A stretch of 37,063 bases of DNA from Hadesarchaea archaeon (lineage in GTDB: Archaea > Hadarchaeota > Hadarchaeia > Hadarchaeales > JAGGTB01), in NCBI GenBank assembly GCA_021163965.1, contig JAGGTB010000053.1:1-37063 (forward strand). The letters are read 5' to 3'. This document shows, in pieces, positions 6,136-13,701 of this stretch. Made by a program: the position numbers and the translations under genes. Each line of letters begins with the position of its first letter. Position 1 is the first letter of the stretch. Under the pieces are notes generated by a model. It made no database searches. It was not told where the DNA came from and saw only the letters and a list, made by a program, of their open reading frames with translations.

Positions 6136-6474
6136 GTGAGACCCAAAGGCGGACTCGCGGTCTCAGATGTAATCCGATCGATGATGCGCTGCGGCTTTGA
6201 CCGGGACGAAATATACGACGTTCTAGTTGGGATAGGATTGCCCGGAGAACAGGTTCACCTCTTGATCGATCGTGTCTCCGCCGAACTAGAGGAAATGGAA
6301 CTTGAGCCAAGACCCTCTAAGTTGGAGAAAACCCTGCAGAAGACGCTGGAGGAAGCGCTGGCGAGAATAAAAATTGAACTGTTCGCGGAACTTGCTCCAG
6401 TCGTGCGGAAAATAAATGATATTGCAGAGATGCTCGAAAGTCTTGAGTCCCGGGAAACTAAGAAAAAAGCCTGA
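6136..6474 (+). CDS. Hypothetical protein, helical/coiled-coil
   Basis: 112-aa ORF with GTG start, no overlapping better ORF. Confidence 0.6.
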   Translation: MRPKGGLAVSDVIRSMMRCGFDRDEIYDVLVGIGLPGEQVHLLIDRVSAELEEMELEPRPSKLEKTLQKTLEEALARIKIELFAELAPVVRKINDIAEMLESLESRETKKKA

Positions 6475-6489
6475 GCTAAACCTTTGAAT

Positions 6490-8715
6490 TTACCCATGTT
6501 GTACGTGAAAAAGACTAAGGCTTACGACCACCAACCTGAAGTCGAACTTCTTCTCCGGAAGCTCACAACGATACGCCAAGGGCTTGTGAGCCGCCCGCAG
6601 GGGAGAATCCCCGTCCTCGGGCATCGGCCTGACGAGGGTTGGGTTCTCGTAGTCGAAGATCTCCTCGAGAGGATTATCCCTCAGCTCCAAGGTGACGTTC
6701 CACTGGGCCCAGTAGATAGTCGTCCCGATGAACCAGAGGTAAATGGGAGTCGGAAGGGATGGGGCGAATCGGCCGACGGGATCCTCACGCTCGTACCTGA
6801 TGTCGGCGACCTCGAACTCGTGAAAAACGGATATACCGGGATCTGACCTTATGGGCTCCGGAGGCGCCAGCTCGTAGGCCTGCTCGCGATCGAATGTGCT
6901 CGGAAGCACAAAACTCTGCTCCATGGCGTCGAGGAGGTCGCCATCAATATCCCATTTTGTGAGGTCGCCTTGAAGCGAATCAAAAGCTTCCGCGAGATCC
7001 TCCAACCTATCCAAATTCGTCAAGACTTCCTCTAAAACTAACTTGAGACCTCCAATTGTCGGCTCGCCCCCCTCAATCAAGTACCCTCGAACTGTTTTGG
7101 TAACCGGATCGGCATTTGGGTCCTTCCCAGGGTCAGGATATTCTACATAGGTCTCGAACCAGTTCGGTTCTGGACGCTCTAAAAGAGTTTCCAACTCGCT
7201 AGATACTCGGGAGAAGGTTGGCCGAAAGTTATCCTCAGCGTCGCCGATGAAATTTTCGAACTCCTCGATCGCCTTGTGAACTCGCTCGCGGGCATCCCCC
7301 AAGATCCTCTCAATCTCGCTAAGATTGTCCTCAGCGCTAGCAAGACGTTTCTCCAGTTCTCCCGGGAAAATCGAACTGATCTCCGAAGGCACGTGGAGCC
7401 CGGGCTCACAGGCGCACAACTCAAACTTGATGTCGTCCAAAGCACGCTCCACGCCAGAAAACGCGCGCAAAATCTGCTTAGCCAGAGCCCCATCGCCACT
7501 CGTGAAATTGTTGTAGAGCTGAGCCATCAGGGAGTCATCAGAGGCGATTTCCTCTAAGAGTTCCAGAACCTGCCGGAAATTTTCCTCTGCACGCTGCACG
7601 TGAAGCTTCCCTCCCTCCAAGCCAGATAGAACGCCCTCAAGACGCGACAGCGGGGTGGAATAAGCTAGTCTGAAATCCTCGCATAGTTCTCCGAACCTTT
7701 CCCTAACTCTCTCCACATTGGATTCCTCAACGAAGGAGAGGATGTCCTCCAACCCCCCATCGACTTTTACCCTCAAATCCCCCAGATCGAGGTCCACAAT
7801 GTCCTCCACCGCGGATTGTACTTCGGCAAGCTCGCGCTCGGCTCCCTCGAGTTCCTCCAGAACGTCTTCCACCCTCTTGGCCACCTCGCCGATGTGCGAT
7901 GTGTTCAAGGGGTTACCCACGACCACCGAGCTGTATCCCCAAGGAATTTGCTGCACGTCGCCGATTTCACATAGACTAAGAGCCGTGGCAAGATAGTCCG
8001 AAGATCCGAAGGTTGAAAGCTCCTGGGAGGCCCACGCGAGTTGGAACAACGCCTGGGACTTAAACTTGCTCAAAGTCACTTGTCTCCCCACTAGAGCTTC
8101 GGCATATGCCGCCATGTACTCCGCGTATTTCCACTTGTCCTCGATGCTATCCAAGTCTCCCGCGAACCCCTCCAAGAGATCCTCGAGTAAATAGTAACGA
8201 GAGTCAATTATTATCTCGAAGTTCTCATACGTCAACCTGAACCCCAGACTGTTATCCGGGGCGTTAGCCTCAATGACGCACCCGGGGATCGAGACGAGGG
8301 CAACGACGTAGCCGTTCTCCCAAGGGGAGATGTCCACGGATGCCGACTCCTGCCCCATTTCCAACCTTACATCGAGGCCGAAACTTCCGTTCCAAGGATC
8401 CAAGGAGGACAAAAACTCGTTGAGGTTTTTACTAGCTATCCTCTCAATCGCCAGCTCCCGGTCTTCCCTCCCCCGATAACCGCTCGCGTTCTTGCTCACC
8501 TTCCAAAGAGCATCGTAAACGGAGTAGCGCGCGGCCTGCCTGAGCGCACTCTGAACGCTCCCGGCCTCGCTCAAGAGCAAGCTCTCTACCATATCGTCCG
8601 CGCTCTCCATCTTGACCCTGTGCTCATCCCACGAGAAATGCTCGATGAGCGCCGCCGTTAAGATGATGAGAAAAACTCCAACGACCGTAAACGCCGCGTA
8701 TCCCCTCTCGTTCAT
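6490..8715 (-). CDS. Large single-TM-anchored coiled-coil protein, last gene of pilin-like operon
   Basis: 741 aa; N-term 'MNERGYAAFTVVGVFLIILTAALIEHF' TM, long extracytoplasmic helical region; ATGA overlap with upstream gene. Confidence 0.85.
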   Translation of the reverse strand: MNERGYAAFTVVGVFLIILTAALIEHFSWDEHRVKMESADDMVESLLLSEAGSVQSALRQAARYSVYDALWKVSKNASGYRGREDRELAIERIASKNLNEFLSSLDPWNGSFGLDVRLEMGQESASVDISPWENGYVVALVSIPGCVIEANAPDNSLGFRLTYENFEIIIDSRYYLLEDLLEGFAGDLDSIEDKWKYAEYMAAYAEALVGRQVTLSKFKSQALFQLAWASQELSTFGSSDYLATALSLCEIGDVQQIPWGYSSVVVGNPLNTSHIGEVAKRVEDVLEELEGAERELAEVQSAVEDIVDLDLGDLRVKVDGGLEDILSFVEESNVERVRERFGELCEDFRLAYSTPLSRLEGVLSGLEGGKLHVQRAEENFRQVLELLEEIASDDSLMAQLYNNFTSGDGALAKQILRAFSGVERALDDIKFELCACEPGLHVPSEISSIFPGELEKRLASAEDNLSEIERILGDARERVHKAIEEFENFIGDAEDNFRPTFSRVSSELETLLERPEPNWFETYVEYPDPGKDPNADPVTKTVRGYLIEGGEPTIGGLKLVLEEVLTNLDRLEDLAEAFDSLQGDLTKWDIDGDLLDAMEQSFVLPSTFDREQAYELAPPEPIRSDPGISVFHEFEVADIRYEREDPVGRFAPSLPTPIYLWFIGTTIYWAQWNVTLELRDNPLEEIFDYENPTLVRPMPEDGDSPLRAAHKPLAYRCELPEKKFDFRLVVVSLSLFHVQHG

Positions 8716-9335
8716 TTAGACCACAACTCCAAAGTCATCACGAGCACCAATCGAGACCTGGAAGCCTTGAGGTCCCACTCCCGAGCACCCGTGAGCACCG
8801 GTGGAAGGGGCCAAGAGACGCTCTCCGAACACAACTTCTCAGGCCCCCGATCGCTCTCGACCACGAGCTCGAAGTTGGTGACCTCCCCGGAGCGCTCTAC
8901 GGGGGCGATCTCCGCTACGAACCTGTAGCCAAATCTTCCCCCGACGAGCTCATCGAGTGCACGCTTTAGAAAATCCCGAACTTTCCCATCGAATTCGGGA
9001 TTAGAGCTGAGAATTGGCCCATTCCCCCTTGGCCCCGGCCGAGGGTTCAGGATAGCGTCCTCCGCGATGAGCTGAACAAAGGTCTTGCGTTTCAGAACGA
9101 ACTCAGACTTCCAGATGGTCTCAATGCTCGGGTGAAACGAAAACTCACCAATTTCCCCGACGGTCCCCCACTGAAGGGAAACTAAGGCTCTCCTAGCGAC
9201 GCTCGTAGCATAGCGTTGTGAGAGCCAGTCGGAGTCGTGGAAACTCATCGAAATCAGTGCGGAACTTCCGAGCGCCACCATAGAGGCAAACAAGAGCAGG
9301 TCTAGAGTTTGACCTACGCCCCCGTTTTCTTTCAT
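8712..9335 (-). CDS. Single-TM pilin/pseudopilin-like protein
   Basis: N-term 'GGVGQTLDLLLFASMVALGSSALISMSF' TM; operon context. Confidence 0.75.
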   Translation of the reverse strand: MKENGGVGQTLDLLLFASMVALGSSALISMSFHDSDWLSQRYATSVARRALVSLQWGTVGEIGEFSFHPSIETIWKSEFVLKRKTFVQLIAEDAILNPRPGPRGNGPILSSNPEFDGKVRDFLKRALDELVGGRFGYRFVAEIAPVERSGEVTNFELVVESDRGPEKLCSESVSWPLPPVLTGAREWDLKASRSRLVLVMTLELWSK

Positions 9336-9336
9336 T

Positions 9337-9774
9337 TTACTCCCTCCAGACCCATACCGTTAGATCACCTAACCCACGTACTTCTCCCTCATCCCCGACT
9401 ACGGCGGGTAGCTCAACAGAAAGCGGGTCATCAGCCGGCTCTGGGCCGTATGATAACAACGTTTTCCCATCAGACGACTTGACCTCAACCCTGAGGATCA
9501 TTCCCTCGTCGAACGGGGTTTCCGAAAACTTCTGCAACTCACATCCGAAATCATTACACGTTATTATGCCGATCTCATTTTTCTCTCCCCCGCATGTGGC
9601 ACCGTTCGTCAAGGCCTCCGCGACGCTCAGAGCAAAACCGAAATCCTCTTGGAACTTGACGCTCTCCCTATGGGCCTCGTACGAGTTTGCCAAAGTTAGG
9701 ATGAAGACGGACAACAAGGCAGTGGCAAAGACCACTGAGAGGAGATCCTCCCCCAGAGTTATTTGGGACATCAA
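9337..9774 (-). CDS. Single-TM pilin/pseudopilin-like protein
   Basis: N-term 'LGEDLLSVVFATALLSVFILTLANSYEA'; polar C-terminal domain with two cysteines. Confidence 0.75.
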   Translation of the reverse strand: MMSQITLGEDLLSVVFATALLSVFILTLANSYEAHRESVKFQEDFGFALSVAEALTNGATCGGEKNEIGIITCNDFGCELQKFSETPFDEGMILRVEVKSSDGKTLLSYGPEPADDPLSVELPAVVGDEGEVRGLGDLTVWVWRE

Positions 9775-10190
9775 AAGACCTCCATGTGAATTCGTCCGTC
9801 CCTCTTAGTGAGCCGGATTACCCTTGGGTTTTCGTGGGTGAACTCGAACTCTCCGCCGTTGACCTCCGTGGATAGAGTTGCAATCCTCTCGAGGTTCTCC
9901 CCACCGATCATCACTCGGACGAGCTGAGCGCCGCCGCGATTTCCAACGAAGTCGAGTTTAAACTCCCCGCTCACCCGCGGGAGTTCTCTCTCCACCCACG
10001 CTTCCCCCGGCAACCTGTCGATTTCCCTTAGCGCGTCGGTCACGCATTTGAGGACCGCCTTGAGTTCATCCGATCTGGCCGTGCGCTCGAAACTTCCCGT
10101 CATCGACAGAGTAGCGGTGATTATGCCACCGACCGCCAGCCAGACGCCAATCTTCCCCATCAAAAAATTAGCTAAACCTCCCTGATCCAC
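9771..10190 (-). CDS. Single-TM pilin/pseudopilin-like protein
   Basis: N-term 'FLMGKIGVWLAVGGIITATLSM'; 4-nt overlap with downstream gene. Confidence 0.75.
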   Translation of the reverse strand: MDQGGLANFLMGKIGVWLAVGGIITATLSMTGSFERTARSDELKAVLKCVTDALREIDRLPGEAWVERELPRVSGEFKLDFVGNRGGAQLVRVMIGGENLERIATLSTEVNGGEFEFTHENPRVIRLTKRDGRIHMEVF

Positions 10191-10621
10191 TACATCTCCT
10201 CCAGACGAAGGGATTCCACCAACGTCGCGTTGTCATCGAATCTATACGCCACAAGCGTTAGAGAGTAAGAGCCGCTACGAATTCTCTCCCCCTTCCCGTA
10301 ACCCGAGATCGGTAATGGTAGAACCTCACTTCTGCGGATCTCGCCTCCGACTTCCAACTGGACGAGCCTACCATCCACAAGTATTTCGCCGTTGGGGAGA
10401 TCCAAGCTGAAGTACCTCTTTGTTCCGATGCCCCCAGAACTCACCGCGTGCGCCTGCTCCACCAAAGTATTGAAGCTCTCGATCGCCCTTTGATCTTCGA
10501 GGAGTCCTTGCGTTCTGGTTAGCGCCTTGACGCCGAGACCTAACACCAGCACACCGAGCGCGACGCTCAGGATGATTACCACCGGTAGGGACCCCACTCC
10601 ACTCGTCTCTCGATTGGGCAA
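10190..10621 (-). CDS. Single-TM pilin/pseudopilin-like protein
   Basis: N-term 'VGSLPVVIILSVALGVLVLGLGVKAL'; overlaps downstream gene by 1 nt. Confidence 0.75.
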   Translation of the reverse strand: MPNRETSGVGSLPVVIILSVALGVLVLGLGVKALTRTQGLLEDQRAIESFNTLVEQAHAVSSGGIGTKRYFSLDLPNGEILVDGRLVQLEVGGEIRRSEVLPLPISGYGKGERIRSGSYSLTLVAYRFDDNATLVESLRLEEM

Positions 10622-10629
10622 TCCGACAC

Positions 10630-11016
10630 CTACTTAGAAACTACGACTTCTCCTTCCCAAGGGATGTACCCGGGACACGTCACTCGCACGCTCACGAGCA
10701 CGTAGGATTTGCCGCCCATCGGGATGCGGAACGTGTGGCTACCGTCGGACCTCCCGCTGATAGTGTCAGCCTTTGTTCCACCGGGGTACCTCACGATGAT
10801 GGTTGCCCCATCTAGTGGCTCCCCGCTCTGAGCGTCCTCCACCCTGACTTTCAGATAACCTTTGGAGGCGCGATCGAGTGAAACGTGCATATCCCGCATT
10901 GCTGTTCTCTCCGCCGTCCCGACGAACTGAGTCATTATACCCATCACCATGGCTCCTATGACCAACGCCATGACGAGCTTTATGGGAACCCCCGTCAGTT
11001 GTCCTTTGTCCTCCAT
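10630..11016 (-). CDS. Single-TM pilin-like protein with carboxypeptidase-regulatory-like beta domain
   Basis: N-term 'DKGQLTGVPIKLVMALVIGAMVMGIM'; C-term 'GEPLDGATIIVRYPGGTKADTISGRSDGSHTFRIP'. Confidence 0.78.
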   Translation of the reverse strand: MEDKGQLTGVPIKLVMALVIGAMVMGIMTQFVGTAERTAMRDMHVSLDRASKGYLKVRVEDAQSGEPLDGATIIVRYPGGTKADTISGRSDGSHTFRIPMGGKSYVLVSVRVTCPGYIPWEGEVVVSK

Positions 11017-11399: not shown

Positions 11400-12608
11400 A
11401 TGGTAGAACACTACGACGTAATAGTTGTTGGAGGAGGACCAGCCGGTTTGTCGGCTGCTAGTGCCGCTGCTTCCAAGGGCGGCAAGGTTCTTTTGTTGGA
11501 ACTTCAAGCGCAAATAGGCGGGCAGACACAGTCCGTTGCATGGTTGCCAAAGGAAATAGTCAAAAGGGAACTCAAGCGCTCGATCGCCAGCGAGGTCGAG
11601 GAAGTCGTGCTTCACTCGCCGCATCGGAGAGTTGGAATAAGCGGGAGCTACGGCGTTATTGTCGACCGCAGGCTCTTCGATAAGCTCTTGGCGGTGCAAG
11701 CTGTTTCCTCGGGGGCGGAGATCTGGATAAGCTCCCCCGTAAAGGACCTGCTGAAGAACGATGGCACCGTCCGAGGGGTCTGCGCCGAGGCCGGATCTTG
11801 GTCCGAACGACTCGAGTGCGAGATTGTGATCGATGCAACGGGGATGAGCGGACGCTGGTCCGGCCTTTTCCTCCGCGAAATCCTCGGAAGGAAGTGGGAT
11901 AAGGAGCGTCTTGTTCTGAGCAATGAGTACCTGATGGCAAATGCTGAAACTGAAAAACGCGTGAGGCTATTTTTCTCCTCCTACTTCGCTCCGATGGGTT
12001 ACGCGTGGATATTTCCGTTCGGGAAATATCTCGCGATGATCGGCATAAGGGGGGTAAGAATTCATCCGGATGCCGCGCTGGACGAGTTCATAGGACGTCA
12101 AGAACTTCCGGGACTTGAGAAAGCCCTGCCCATAGCCGCCTTTCGAAGACAGTTGCCACTTGAGAACTGGATAAAACAAACGCACTCCGACGGGATCTTA
12201 GCAGTTGGTGGGGCCGCCGGACAGATTTATCCCGTTTCGGGCCATGGAATAAAGTATTCACTTAGATGTGGTGAAATCGCTGGGGAAGTAGCGGTGGAGG
12301 CCGTGAGCGAGGGTGATCCATCGAGCGAGTTCCTCGAGGAATACGACAGAAAGTGGCGAAGCGAATTTGGAAAGGAACTACAAATCGGGCGAATGCTTCA
12401 CTCATGGCTTCAAACCTCCCCAGATAAAAAAACAGACGCTCTTTTCAGCGCGATGACTAACGACATCGAACTACAGCGCGATTTCTTAGGAGTCTTCTTA
12501 CCATTTGAGCTCGAAAAGCACCTCAAGAGGTTCCTGTCAAATGACAAAGTGCAAAAAATTTTTGGCCAGAACAATACGGATAAAGCTCTTGTGACCTACT
12601 TTTCATAA
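11400..12608 (+). CDS. Geranylgeranyl-reductase-family FAD oxidoreductase
   Basis: 'YDVIVVGGGPAGLSAASAAASKGGKVLLLE' FAD motif; 'AVGGAAGQIYPVSGHGIKYSLRCG'. Confidence 0.85.
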   Translation: MVEHYDVIVVGGGPAGLSAASAAASKGGKVLLLELQAQIGGQTQSVAWLPKEIVKRELKRSIASEVEEVVLHSPHRRVGISGSYGVIVDRRLFDKLLAVQAVSSGAEIWISSPVKDLLKNDGTVRGVCAEAGSWSERLECEIVIDATGMSGRWSGLFLREILGRKWDKERLVLSNEYLMANAETEKRVRLFFSSYFAPMGYAWIFPFGKYLAMIGIRGVRIHPDAALDEFIGRQELPGLEKALPIAAFRRQLPLENWIKQTHSDGILAVGGAAGQIYPVSGHGIKYSLRCGEIAGEVAVEAVSEGDPSSEFLEEYDRKWRSEFGKELQIGRMLHSWLQTSPDKKTDALFSAMTNDIELQRDFLGVFLPFELEKHLKRFLSNDKVQKIFGQNNTDKALVTYFS

Positions 12609-12650: not shown

Positions 12651-13701
12651 ATGCGTTTCATAACCCTCGCCTCAGGCAAAGGTGGCGTCGGTAAAAGCAC
12701 GATAACTGCCAATTTCGGGATAGCGCTTTCACTAATGGGGCACCCCACTACTGTTGTAGATGCATGCCTAACCTCCCGACTTGGGGTTGTTCTGTGACCT
12801 CCTCCCCTCGCTTTCGCAAGGGGCTTCCACTTTTCCTTCGCGTTACGCCCTCATCGCCTCCGCTCGGGGCGCGTTTCGTGGAAGCTTTTCCCGCCTTACG
12901 CGGTACTCCAGGTTCCTGCTTCAGCGACCGGACTCGATCCCCGCTTGCCCGGAGGCAGAGGCGGGTTACGGAGGTCTCGATCTCCACAGGCGTGAATTCG
13001 GGGTGGCCCCTCCCTACTCGATTTGCATTTCGCCGAGCATTTTTATATCCCTTTCAGGGAGAGATACCCGTAAGTATTTCGCCTTTCATCCCCTCCCTCG
13101 CGGAAGGGGACTTCCCGGCGGTAGAGTTAAACTCGAAAAGGTCACCTACACGATCAACGACGTTCTAAACGGTCGTGCGTCTATCAAAGATGTCGTTTAC
13201 GAGGGGCCTGGAGGGGTGAGGGTAGTCCCGGCGTCAATAGCTCTCGATCGGATTCAAAACGTGAAGCCGGAGAACTTACCAGAGGTGATAAAGAACCAGC
13301 CCCAGGGAACCGAATTTGTACTAATAGATGCCCCCAACGGTCTCCGAAGTGAGACAGTTGCCGCCATTCGTGCGGGGAAGGAACTCCTACTGGTGACAAC
13401 TCCTGAGGTAACTGCGGTCTCGGACGCGATGAAAACCCGAATAGCCGCGGAGTTCCTCGGATTGAAACCCATCGGTATTGTGTTAAATCAGGTCCATGGA
13501 GATGAATATGAGATCAAAAAGTACGAAATCGAGGATCTCATGAACCTCAGAGTGTTGGCCGAAATACCATATGATAACAAGGCTAGGGGCGCTCTGAGGG
13601 AAGGGATTCCCCTACTAGAATTTGATCCAAAATCGAAGGCTTCAAAAGCCATAAAGAAGTTGGCAGAAAAAATCGTAGAAATTCGAAGGAGAAAAAAATG
13701 A
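12651..13701 (+). pseudogene. minD: MinD/ParA-family ATPase interrupted by a mobile element
   Basis: N-term 12651-12797 '[48 protein letters not shown]' (deviant Walker A); C-term from ~13129 'KLEKVTYTINDVLNGRASIKDVVYEGPGGVRVVPASIAL...FVLIDAPNGL...' in another frame. Confidence 0.88.
12794..13127 (-). mobile_element. IS200/IS605-derived MITE/PATE with decayed TnpB C-terminus
   Basis: Minus-strand remnant 'YKNARRNANRVGRGHPEFTPVEIETS...VRSLKQEPGVPRKAG...' resembles TnpB tail; similar imperfect hairpins near both ends (13090-13109, 12804-12823); terminal 55 nt recurs at 37009 (53/55 identical). Confidence 0.85.

What the first reader, a model, noticed from the sequence alone, without database searches (positions are those of the whole stretch)
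6490..11016. Six-gene pilin/pseudopilin-like operon with a 741-aa coiled-coil capstone and no ATPase in view
Seen: six consecutive minus-strand ORFs with 1-4 nt overlaps or gaps of less than 10 nt. Each has one hydrophobic N-terminal segment followed by a polar domain; a single TATA-like box sits upstream. Known: type IV filament systems use operons of minor pilins with conserved hydrophobic N-termini, and as I recall haloarchaea carry clusters of small DUFs next to pilus ATPase genes. Inference: these form a hetero-oligomeric surface filament tip or secretion-like assembly, with the 741-aa protein as the large extracellular subunit and motor/platform proteins encoded elsewhere.
Basis: partly seen in the sequence, partly recalled or inferred. 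Interest (0 to 1): 0.75.

Follow-up and report, generated by a model that had tools for sequence, protein, structure and literature searches.

The report
Archaeal type IV filament subunit operon
Six neighbouring genes in a deep-subsurface archaeon (Hadesarchaea) encode the subunits of a type IV pilus-like filament; their relatives in salt-loving archaea sit right next to the pilus motor genes, so this is a real, conserved, little-studied member of a known machine rather than a new kind of one.

Summary
In detail: six tightly packed minus-strand genes (6490-11016), each with one N-terminal hydrophobic helix behind a class III (prepilin-type) leader, with a TATA box 30 nt upstream. The same order p1-p6 occurs in about 20 Hadesarchaea MAGs and in a genome outside the phylum (G129). 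Profile comparison matches p4, p5 and p6 to Pfam DUF7285, DUF7284 and DUF7286 (98-99% probability; off-diagonals for these three at most 5%; still at least 94% without the N-terminal helix). In all eight haloarchaeal loci read, that cluster lies downstream of a PilB-type ATPase, with the TadC platform gene between them wherever it could be called. The window's genome carries the orthologous ATPase+TadC pair on another contig (C20), and a second, divergent pair (C19) with its own pilins. p1 folds as N-terminal helix plus beta-sandwich, p6 as a long N-terminal helix with a coiled-coil middle. Closest described system: probably the cysteine-rich-ATPase euryarchaeal T4P (subclade 4F, Makarova 2016). 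Unproven: that p6 caps the tip, that p1 is the main subunit, and what the filament does. New member of a known kind.

The parts
10630..11016 (-). p1, 128 aa: class III leader (MEDKG|QL...), N-terminal helix, beta-sandwich domain; most conserved subunit, candidate core subunit
   Evidence: 48-62% identity across the order; helix + 7 strands; CarboxypepD_reg-like, below cut-off; 98.5% to p1 of G129
10190..10621 (-). p2, 143 aa: pilin-like small subunit (relatives: KG|VESLPVV...); no Pfam family
   Evidence: 95.5% to p2 of G129; weaker, mostly helix-driven similarity to a pilin of the second system in the same genome
9771..10190 (-). p3, 139 aa: pilin-like small subunit; positional counterpart of haloarchaeal DUF7283, but no sequence homology shown
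   Evidence: 3.4% to DUF7283, i.e. not significant
9337..9774 (-). p4, 145 aa: homologue of DUF7285 (PF23956)
   Evidence: 97.8%; 94.7% without the N-terminal helix; 78.6% against haloarchaea only
8712..9335 (-). p5, 207 aa: homologue of DUF7284 (PF23955)
   Evidence: (98.8%; 97.8% without the N-terminal helix)
6490..8715 (-). p6, 741 aa: large subunit, homologue of DUF7286 (PF23957): RG| leader, 70-residue N-terminal helix, beta-sheet, coiled-coil middle (272-512), conserved C-terminal beta domain
   Evidence: invariant G5; 97.9%, p6 profile columns 4-248; 94.7% without helix
11046..11054 (-). TATA-like element TTTATAAAT, 30 nt upstream of the p1 start
6136..6474 (+). convergent 112-aa cytosolic coiled-coil-type protein, conserved next to the 3' end of p6 in about 16 Hadesarchaea genomes; partner or mere neighbour not resolved
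   Evidence: not next to the operon in G129

Best explanation
The operon encodes the pilin-like subunits of an archaeal type IV filament. Each protein is inserted in the membrane, most by a class III leader that an A24 prepilin peptidase would trim (inferred), and the hydrophobic helices pack into a helical filament core. Assembly is powered in trans by the orthologue of the haloarchaeal DUF7286-linked PilB ATPase with its TadC platform, on contig C20. The small beta-sandwich protein p1 is the best candidate for the repeating core subunit, p2-p5 are minor subunits, and p6, a pilin-like stem carrying a coiled coil and a C-terminal beta domain, most likely sits at the exposed tip (p1 and p6 roles about 0.5 each). 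Shown: gene set, order, conservation, homology of p4/p5/p6 to a PilB-linked cluster, existence of the orthologous motor in the same genome. Inferred: leader cleavage, polymerisation, subunit roles, function.
For: Conserved order p1-p6 in about 20 Hadesarchaea MAGs and in G129 outside the phylum, p3 there by position only. p4/p5/p6 match DUF7285/7284/7286 in a diagonal profile-comparison matrix, repeated against haloarchaea alone at 79-82%. In eight of eight haloarchaeal loci a PilB-type ATPase lies upstream of this cluster on the same strand. The Hadesarchaeal ATPase groups with those ATPases in a tree (90/71 support), and both carry a cysteine-rich N-terminus. ATPase and operon co-occur: both in 20, operon only 2, ATPase only 1, neither 5 of 28 genomes (Fisher p = 0.001, phylogeny not corrected). 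The other ATPase/TadC pair in the window's genome has its own adjacent pilin genes. In G016 the ATPase, TadC, p1 and the start of p2 share one 9.9-kb contig. p1 folds as helix plus beta-sandwich.
Against: No experiment. No A24 prepilin peptidase was found in the window's own genome, although it is only 85.6% complete and 21 of 27 order genomes have a match. p4 and some p2/p3 homologues lack a canonical [KR]G cleavage motif. p3 has no detectable homologue outside the order, and p1/p2 none in haloarchaea. p6's fold search gave only generic helical bundles. Tree support joining the ATPases is moderate and haloarchaeal sequences have deviant composition.
Confidence: 0.82

Rival explanations
1. A short envelope-spanning pseudopilus (type II secretion- or competence-like piston) rather than a long surface pilus: one core subunit (p1) plus minor subunits and a large cap (p6), pushing a secreted protein outward or drawing DNA inward.
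For: One conserved small protein, several minor ones and a large last subunit resemble the layout of T2SS (PulG + PulHIJK) and Com (ComGC + ComGD-GG) pilins described in PMC10191384. No PF07790-type major pilin is detectable in the window's genome or in the fairly complete operon-bearing genomes G002, G008 and G013. Single conserved copy in most genomes.
Against: No significant similarity to bacterial pseudopilins (gspI E = 0.19). No substrate gene is linked. Major pilins can be too divergent for PF07790.
Confidence: 0.35
2. p1-p6 are only minor or tip pilins that prime and decorate a filament whose major pilin is a stand-alone gene elsewhere (PilA-like, as proposed for subclade 4F).
For: Makarova 2016 (PMC4858521) proposes stand-alone major pilins for euryarchaeal systems; PF07790 pilins occur in 13 of 27 order genomes. 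p1 is unusually conserved for a major pilin.
Against: No PF07790 match in the window's genome or in several good genomes that have the operon and motor.
Confidence: 0.4
3. A non-polymerising membrane-anchored surface complex that only shares pilin-like N-termini and never forms a filament.
For: Some subunits lack a clear cleavage motif; p6 is mostly non-pilin.
Against: Homologues are encoded beside PilB and usually TadC in haloarchaea, and operon and ATPase co-occur.
Confidence: 0.08
4. The operon is served by the second, divergent ATPase/TadC pair (contig C19) or shared between both motors.
For: Both pairs occur in many of the same genomes; Makarova argues that motors can share pilin sets. 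p2 resembles a pilin beside the second pair (89.6%, mostly the helix).
Against: The second pair has its own pilins in the window's genome, and the first is closer to the DUF7286-linked haloarchaeal ATPases.
Confidence: 0.15

Closest known systems
Haloarchaeal DUF7311-PilB-TadC-DUF7283-DUF7285-DUF7284-DUF7286 locus (Pfam PF23993, PF23954-PF23957)
   Same: Homologous p4, p5, p6 in the same order; homologous ATPase with cysteine-rich N-terminus and homologous TadC
   Different: In Hadesarchaea motor and pilins are unlinked; p1 and p2 have no detected haloarchaeal counterpart; p3 shows no sequence similarity to DUF7283; p6 is shorter (about 500-740 vs about 960-1050 aa)
Euryarchaeal type IV pilus of ATPase subclade 4F (Makarova, Koonin and Albers 2016, PMC4858521)
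   Same: Cysteine-rich N-terminal domain on the ATPase; pilins of euryarchaeal type; a coiled-coil cytosolic component in haloarchaea (possibly DUF7310)
   Different: Assignment is by described features only; arCOG membership could not be tested here and Hadesarchaea are not discussed in the parts of that census I read
H. volcanii PilB4-type T4P (same paper)
   Same: ATPase/TadC associated with its own dedicated pilin set
   Different: PilB4 ATPase is described with Halobacteria-specific extra N- and C-terminal domains; whether it is the DUF7286-linked ATPase was not resolved
Bacterial T2SS pseudopilus / Com pilus subunit sets (PulGHIJK, ComGC-GG)
   Same: One small conserved subunit plus several minor ones and a large one encoded together; works-like analogy only
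   Different: No sequence homology found; no secretin, no linked substrate

Membership tests
Type IV filament (T4F) superfamily | Cognate PilB/VirB11-type assembly ATPase | tested here: met
   738-aa ATPase on contig C20, T2SSE E = 6e-20, grouping with ATPases linked to this pilin cluster in haloarchaea; cognate relation inferred
Type IV filament (T4F) superfamily | TadC/GspF-type platform protein | tested here: met
   586-aa protein with 8 predicted TM segments right after the ATPase, T2SSF E = 5.7e-10
Type IV filament (T4F) superfamily | Subunits with class III leader and N-terminal hydrophobic helix | tested here: met
   All six have the helix; [KR]G-type site clear in p1, p6 and most p2/p5 relatives, less clear in p3 and p4; cleavage itself not testable
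Type IV filament (T4F) superfamily | A24 prepilin peptidase in the genome | tested here: inconclusive
   Match in 21 of 27 order genomes (20 above the family cut-off), none in the 85.6% complete own genome
Type IV filament (T4F) superfamily | Assembled helical filament | not testable with these tools
   needs microscopy
DUF7283-DUF7286 haloarchaeal T4P cluster | Homologues of DUF7285, DUF7284, DUF7286 in this order | tested here: met
DUF7283-DUF7286 haloarchaeal T4P cluster | DUF7283 homologue | tested here: not met
   p3 is at the right position but scores 3.4% against DUF7283
DUF7283-DUF7286 haloarchaeal T4P cluster | Direct linkage to PilB/TadC | tested here: not met
   Unlinked in the window's genome and most Hadesarchaea; 5 kb apart in G016 only
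Subclade 4F euryarchaeal T4P (Makarova 2016) | Cysteine-rich N-terminal domain on the ATPase | tested here: met
   7 cysteines invariant in the first 155 residues; 4 in haloarchaeal, 7 or more in other homologues outside the phylum
Subclade 4F euryarchaeal T4P (Makarova 2016) | Position of the ATPase inside subclade 4F of the 356-protein tree | not tested
   reference sequences with those labels were not available

The most novel reading that the evidence does not exclude
Hadesarchaea, and by homology many Euryarchaea, use this six-subunit set as a self-sufficient archaeal pseudopilus: a short p1-based piston capped by the coiled-coil protein p6, doing secretion or DNA uptake without a PilA-type major pilin, i.e. 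a T2SS/Com-like machine of archaea.
Probability: 0.25. Interest if true: 0.65.

Novelty: new member of a known kind. Interest (0 to 1): 0.4.

Why it matters
It gives a function class to Pfam families of unknown function (DUF7284, DUF7285, DUF7286 and their neighbours) by tying them to one conserved filament subunit set that spans Hadesarchaea, other euryarchaeal lineages and haloarchaea. It makes the question testable in Haloferax volcanii, where DUF7286 is present (control genomes) and genetics is routine. It also indicates a type IV filament in Hadesarchaea, for which I found no dedicated pilus study in the searched literature.

Tried and rejected
Pfam and NCBIfam hits to apolipoprotein, holin, TBCA and SpiroCoCo in p6 were rejected as coiled-coil composition. 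A search of GTDB genomes with p6 alone found nothing; the alignment query worked. Weak p1 matches in very large proteins of other archaea are generic beta domains, not operon homologues. The PINc-KH ATPase on C34 was excluded as a pilus motor: per Makarova 2016 that family is not found in secretion contexts. My first impression that G002 has a single pilus ATPase was wrong: a second, divergent paralogue was missed by PF00437 and found with the alignment profile. The p6 fold search gave only helical-bundle matches, including pore-forming toxins with TM about 0.1; these carry no meaning. The idea that the convergent 112-aa gene is a structural component was not pursued further: it is conserved next to p6 in Hadesarchaea but not next to the operon in G129. 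ATPase/operon distance as evidence in Hadesarchaea was treated as weak (5 kb in G016, about 22 kb in G001).
Full report
WHAT IS THERE. Each protein carries one hydrophobic segment at its N-terminus. Only one other of the 41 non-overlapping window ORFs of at least 90 aa has that property. A TATA element, TTTATAAAT, lies 30 nt upstream of the first start codon. The window is the whole of contig C3 of a 780-kb, 85.6% complete archaeal MAG, and no pilus ATPase match lies on it.

WHOSE GENOME. Relatives of p6 found in GTDB carry the titles Hadesarchaea, Candidatus Hadarchaeum and Hodarchaeaceae, with one 'uncultured archaeon', and the p6-bearing genomes belong to the same order as the window.

CONSERVATION. 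Iterative profile searches over the fetched loci found p1 in 15, p2 in 17, p3 in 16, p4 in 15, p5 in 17 and p6 in 19 ORFs, in the order p1-p2-p3-p4-p5-p6, with the small convergent gene 6136-6474 beside the p6 end in 17 loci. p1 is the most conserved (48-62% identity to the window copy). p6 is 25-35% identical to the window copy, with an invariant glycine at position 5 and conserved N- and C-terminal parts. The leader motif (RG|, KG|) is clear in p1 and p6 and in most p2 and p5 relatives, less so in p3 and p4.

OUTSIDE THE PHYLUM. In about 400 archaeal genomes, p1 had two strong matches outside the order (G371, G129). G129 has the same operon: p1, p2, p4, p5 and p6 by profile, with a 164-aa protein in the p3 position. 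A lone p6-like protein in G056 is a clear DUF7286 member (E 5.8e-37), and a DUF7286 search then found the family in 49 of 199 genomes of that phylum, with Haloferax volcanii and Methanosarcina acetivorans among the control genomes.

LINK TO THE PILUS MOTOR. In the eight haloarchaeal loci read (L287-L292, L299, L300) a PilB-type ATPase lies upstream of DUF7286 on the same strand; the TadC gene between them was called in L287, L288, L290, L291 and L292 and was obscured by my ORF calling in the other, GC-rich loci. The genes of L292 in order are DUF7311, ATPase, TadC, DUF7283, DUF7285, DUF7284, DUF7286 (TadC by similarity to the window genome's TadC, the rest by Pfam). Profile-profile comparison of the six Hadesarchaeal families with these gave p4-DUF7285 97.8%, p5-DUF7284 98.8% and p6-DUF7286 97.9%. 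With the N-terminal helix removed these are 94.7, 97.8 and 94.7%. Off-diagonal comparisons for p4-p6 stayed at or below 5.2%. Against haloarchaeal sequences alone they are 78.6, 81.7 and 81.6%. p3 and DUF7283 are only positional counterparts.

THE MOTOR IN THIS GENOME. Contig C20 carries a 738-aa ATPase (T2SSE E 6e-20) followed by a 586-aa T2SSF protein with eight predicted TM segments. Seven N-terminal cysteines are invariant in its family. A maximum-likelihood tree puts this ATPase with the DUF7286-linked haloarchaeal ATPases (90/71), and apart from the other pilus-type ATPases of the same order (100/100); the program warned of long branches and compositional bias. A second, divergent ATPase/TadC pair on C19 has two pilin-like genes of its own next to it. 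Across 28 genomes of the order or phylum, operon and first ATPase co-occur in 20, operon alone 2, ATPase alone 1, neither 5 (Fisher p 0.001; 0.01 for the 19 genomes at least 85% complete, phylogeny uncorrected). In G016 the ATPase, TadC, p1 and the start of p2 share one 9.9-kb contig, same strand, p1 about 5 kb from TadC. One A24 prepilin peptidase is detected in 21 of 27 order genomes, none in this incomplete one.

STRUCTURE. p1: helix 12-37, then seven strands, pLDDT about 90 in the beta domain; best PDB fold match the Halobacterium archaellum filament, but at E 1.6e-3 and with FN3 domains close behind. p6: a 70-residue N-terminal helix, a six-strand sheet, a helical block, coiled coil 272-512 and a C-terminal beta domain; mean pLDDT 79.5, pTM 0.64. 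No informative global fold match.

HOW IT LIKELY WORKS. Shown: a conserved subunit set homologous to a PilB-linked cluster, and an orthologous motor in the same genome. Inferred: leader cleavage by an A24 peptidase, packing of the helices into a filament driven by ATPase and TadC, p1 as core subunit, p6 as exposed tip subunit. The comparison with T2SS/Com pilin sets (PMC10191384) is one of layout, not homology.

COMPARISON. Makarova et al. 2016 (PMC4858521) describe euryarchaeal type IV pili of subclade 4F whose ATPases often carry a variable cysteine-rich N-terminal domain, with a coiled-coil cytosolic protein in haloarchaea. That description fits best, but arCOG labels could not be tested. 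No paper in the searched library mentions DUF7283-DUF7288, and none of the nine papers pairing Hadesarchaea with pili appears, by title, to study them.

VERDICT. New member of a known kind, moderately interesting because it assigns several DUF families to one filament system.

Noticed in passing
window 12651-13701 (insert about 12797-13115): A MinD/FleN-like ATPase gene next to the operon is split: its P-loop half ([17 protein letters not shown]...) and the rest (VKLEKVTYTINDVLNG...) are in different frames, separated by a roughly 300-nt element with 29 matches in the genome, also at a contig end, and an imperfect 24-nt direct repeat. Makarova 2016 expects a MinD-family ATPase for clade 2 pili.
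   Followed up: partly
window 6136-6474 (+): Small cytosolic protein (SDVIRSMMRxGFxxDEIYDVLxGxGLPGE..., then coiled coil) kept convergent to p6 in nearly all Hadesarchaea with the operon; no Pfam family above cut-off.
   Followed up: partly
L243 4168-9216 (G000 contig C19): A second, strongly diverged ATPase/TadC pair with two pilin-like genes; the ATPase is missed by the PF00437 search but scores 271 bits against the first family's profile.
   Followed up: partly
G014:C18 (L035, and p1 at 11791-12150): In G014 p1 lies about 18 kb from p2, with an in-frame TGA and unrelated genes (including a DNA C5-methyltransferase-like ORF) between, as if an element had been inserted inside the operon.
   Followed up: no
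L293, L294, L298, L205, L206, L213: In several non-Hadesarchaeal genomes p6/DUF7286 is followed by a ~200-aa probably secreted protein (YYNG... motif) that Hadesarchaea lack; in family f30 (G056, G172, G259) the DUF7286 gene does not sit in one operon with the small-pilin genes.
   Followed up: no
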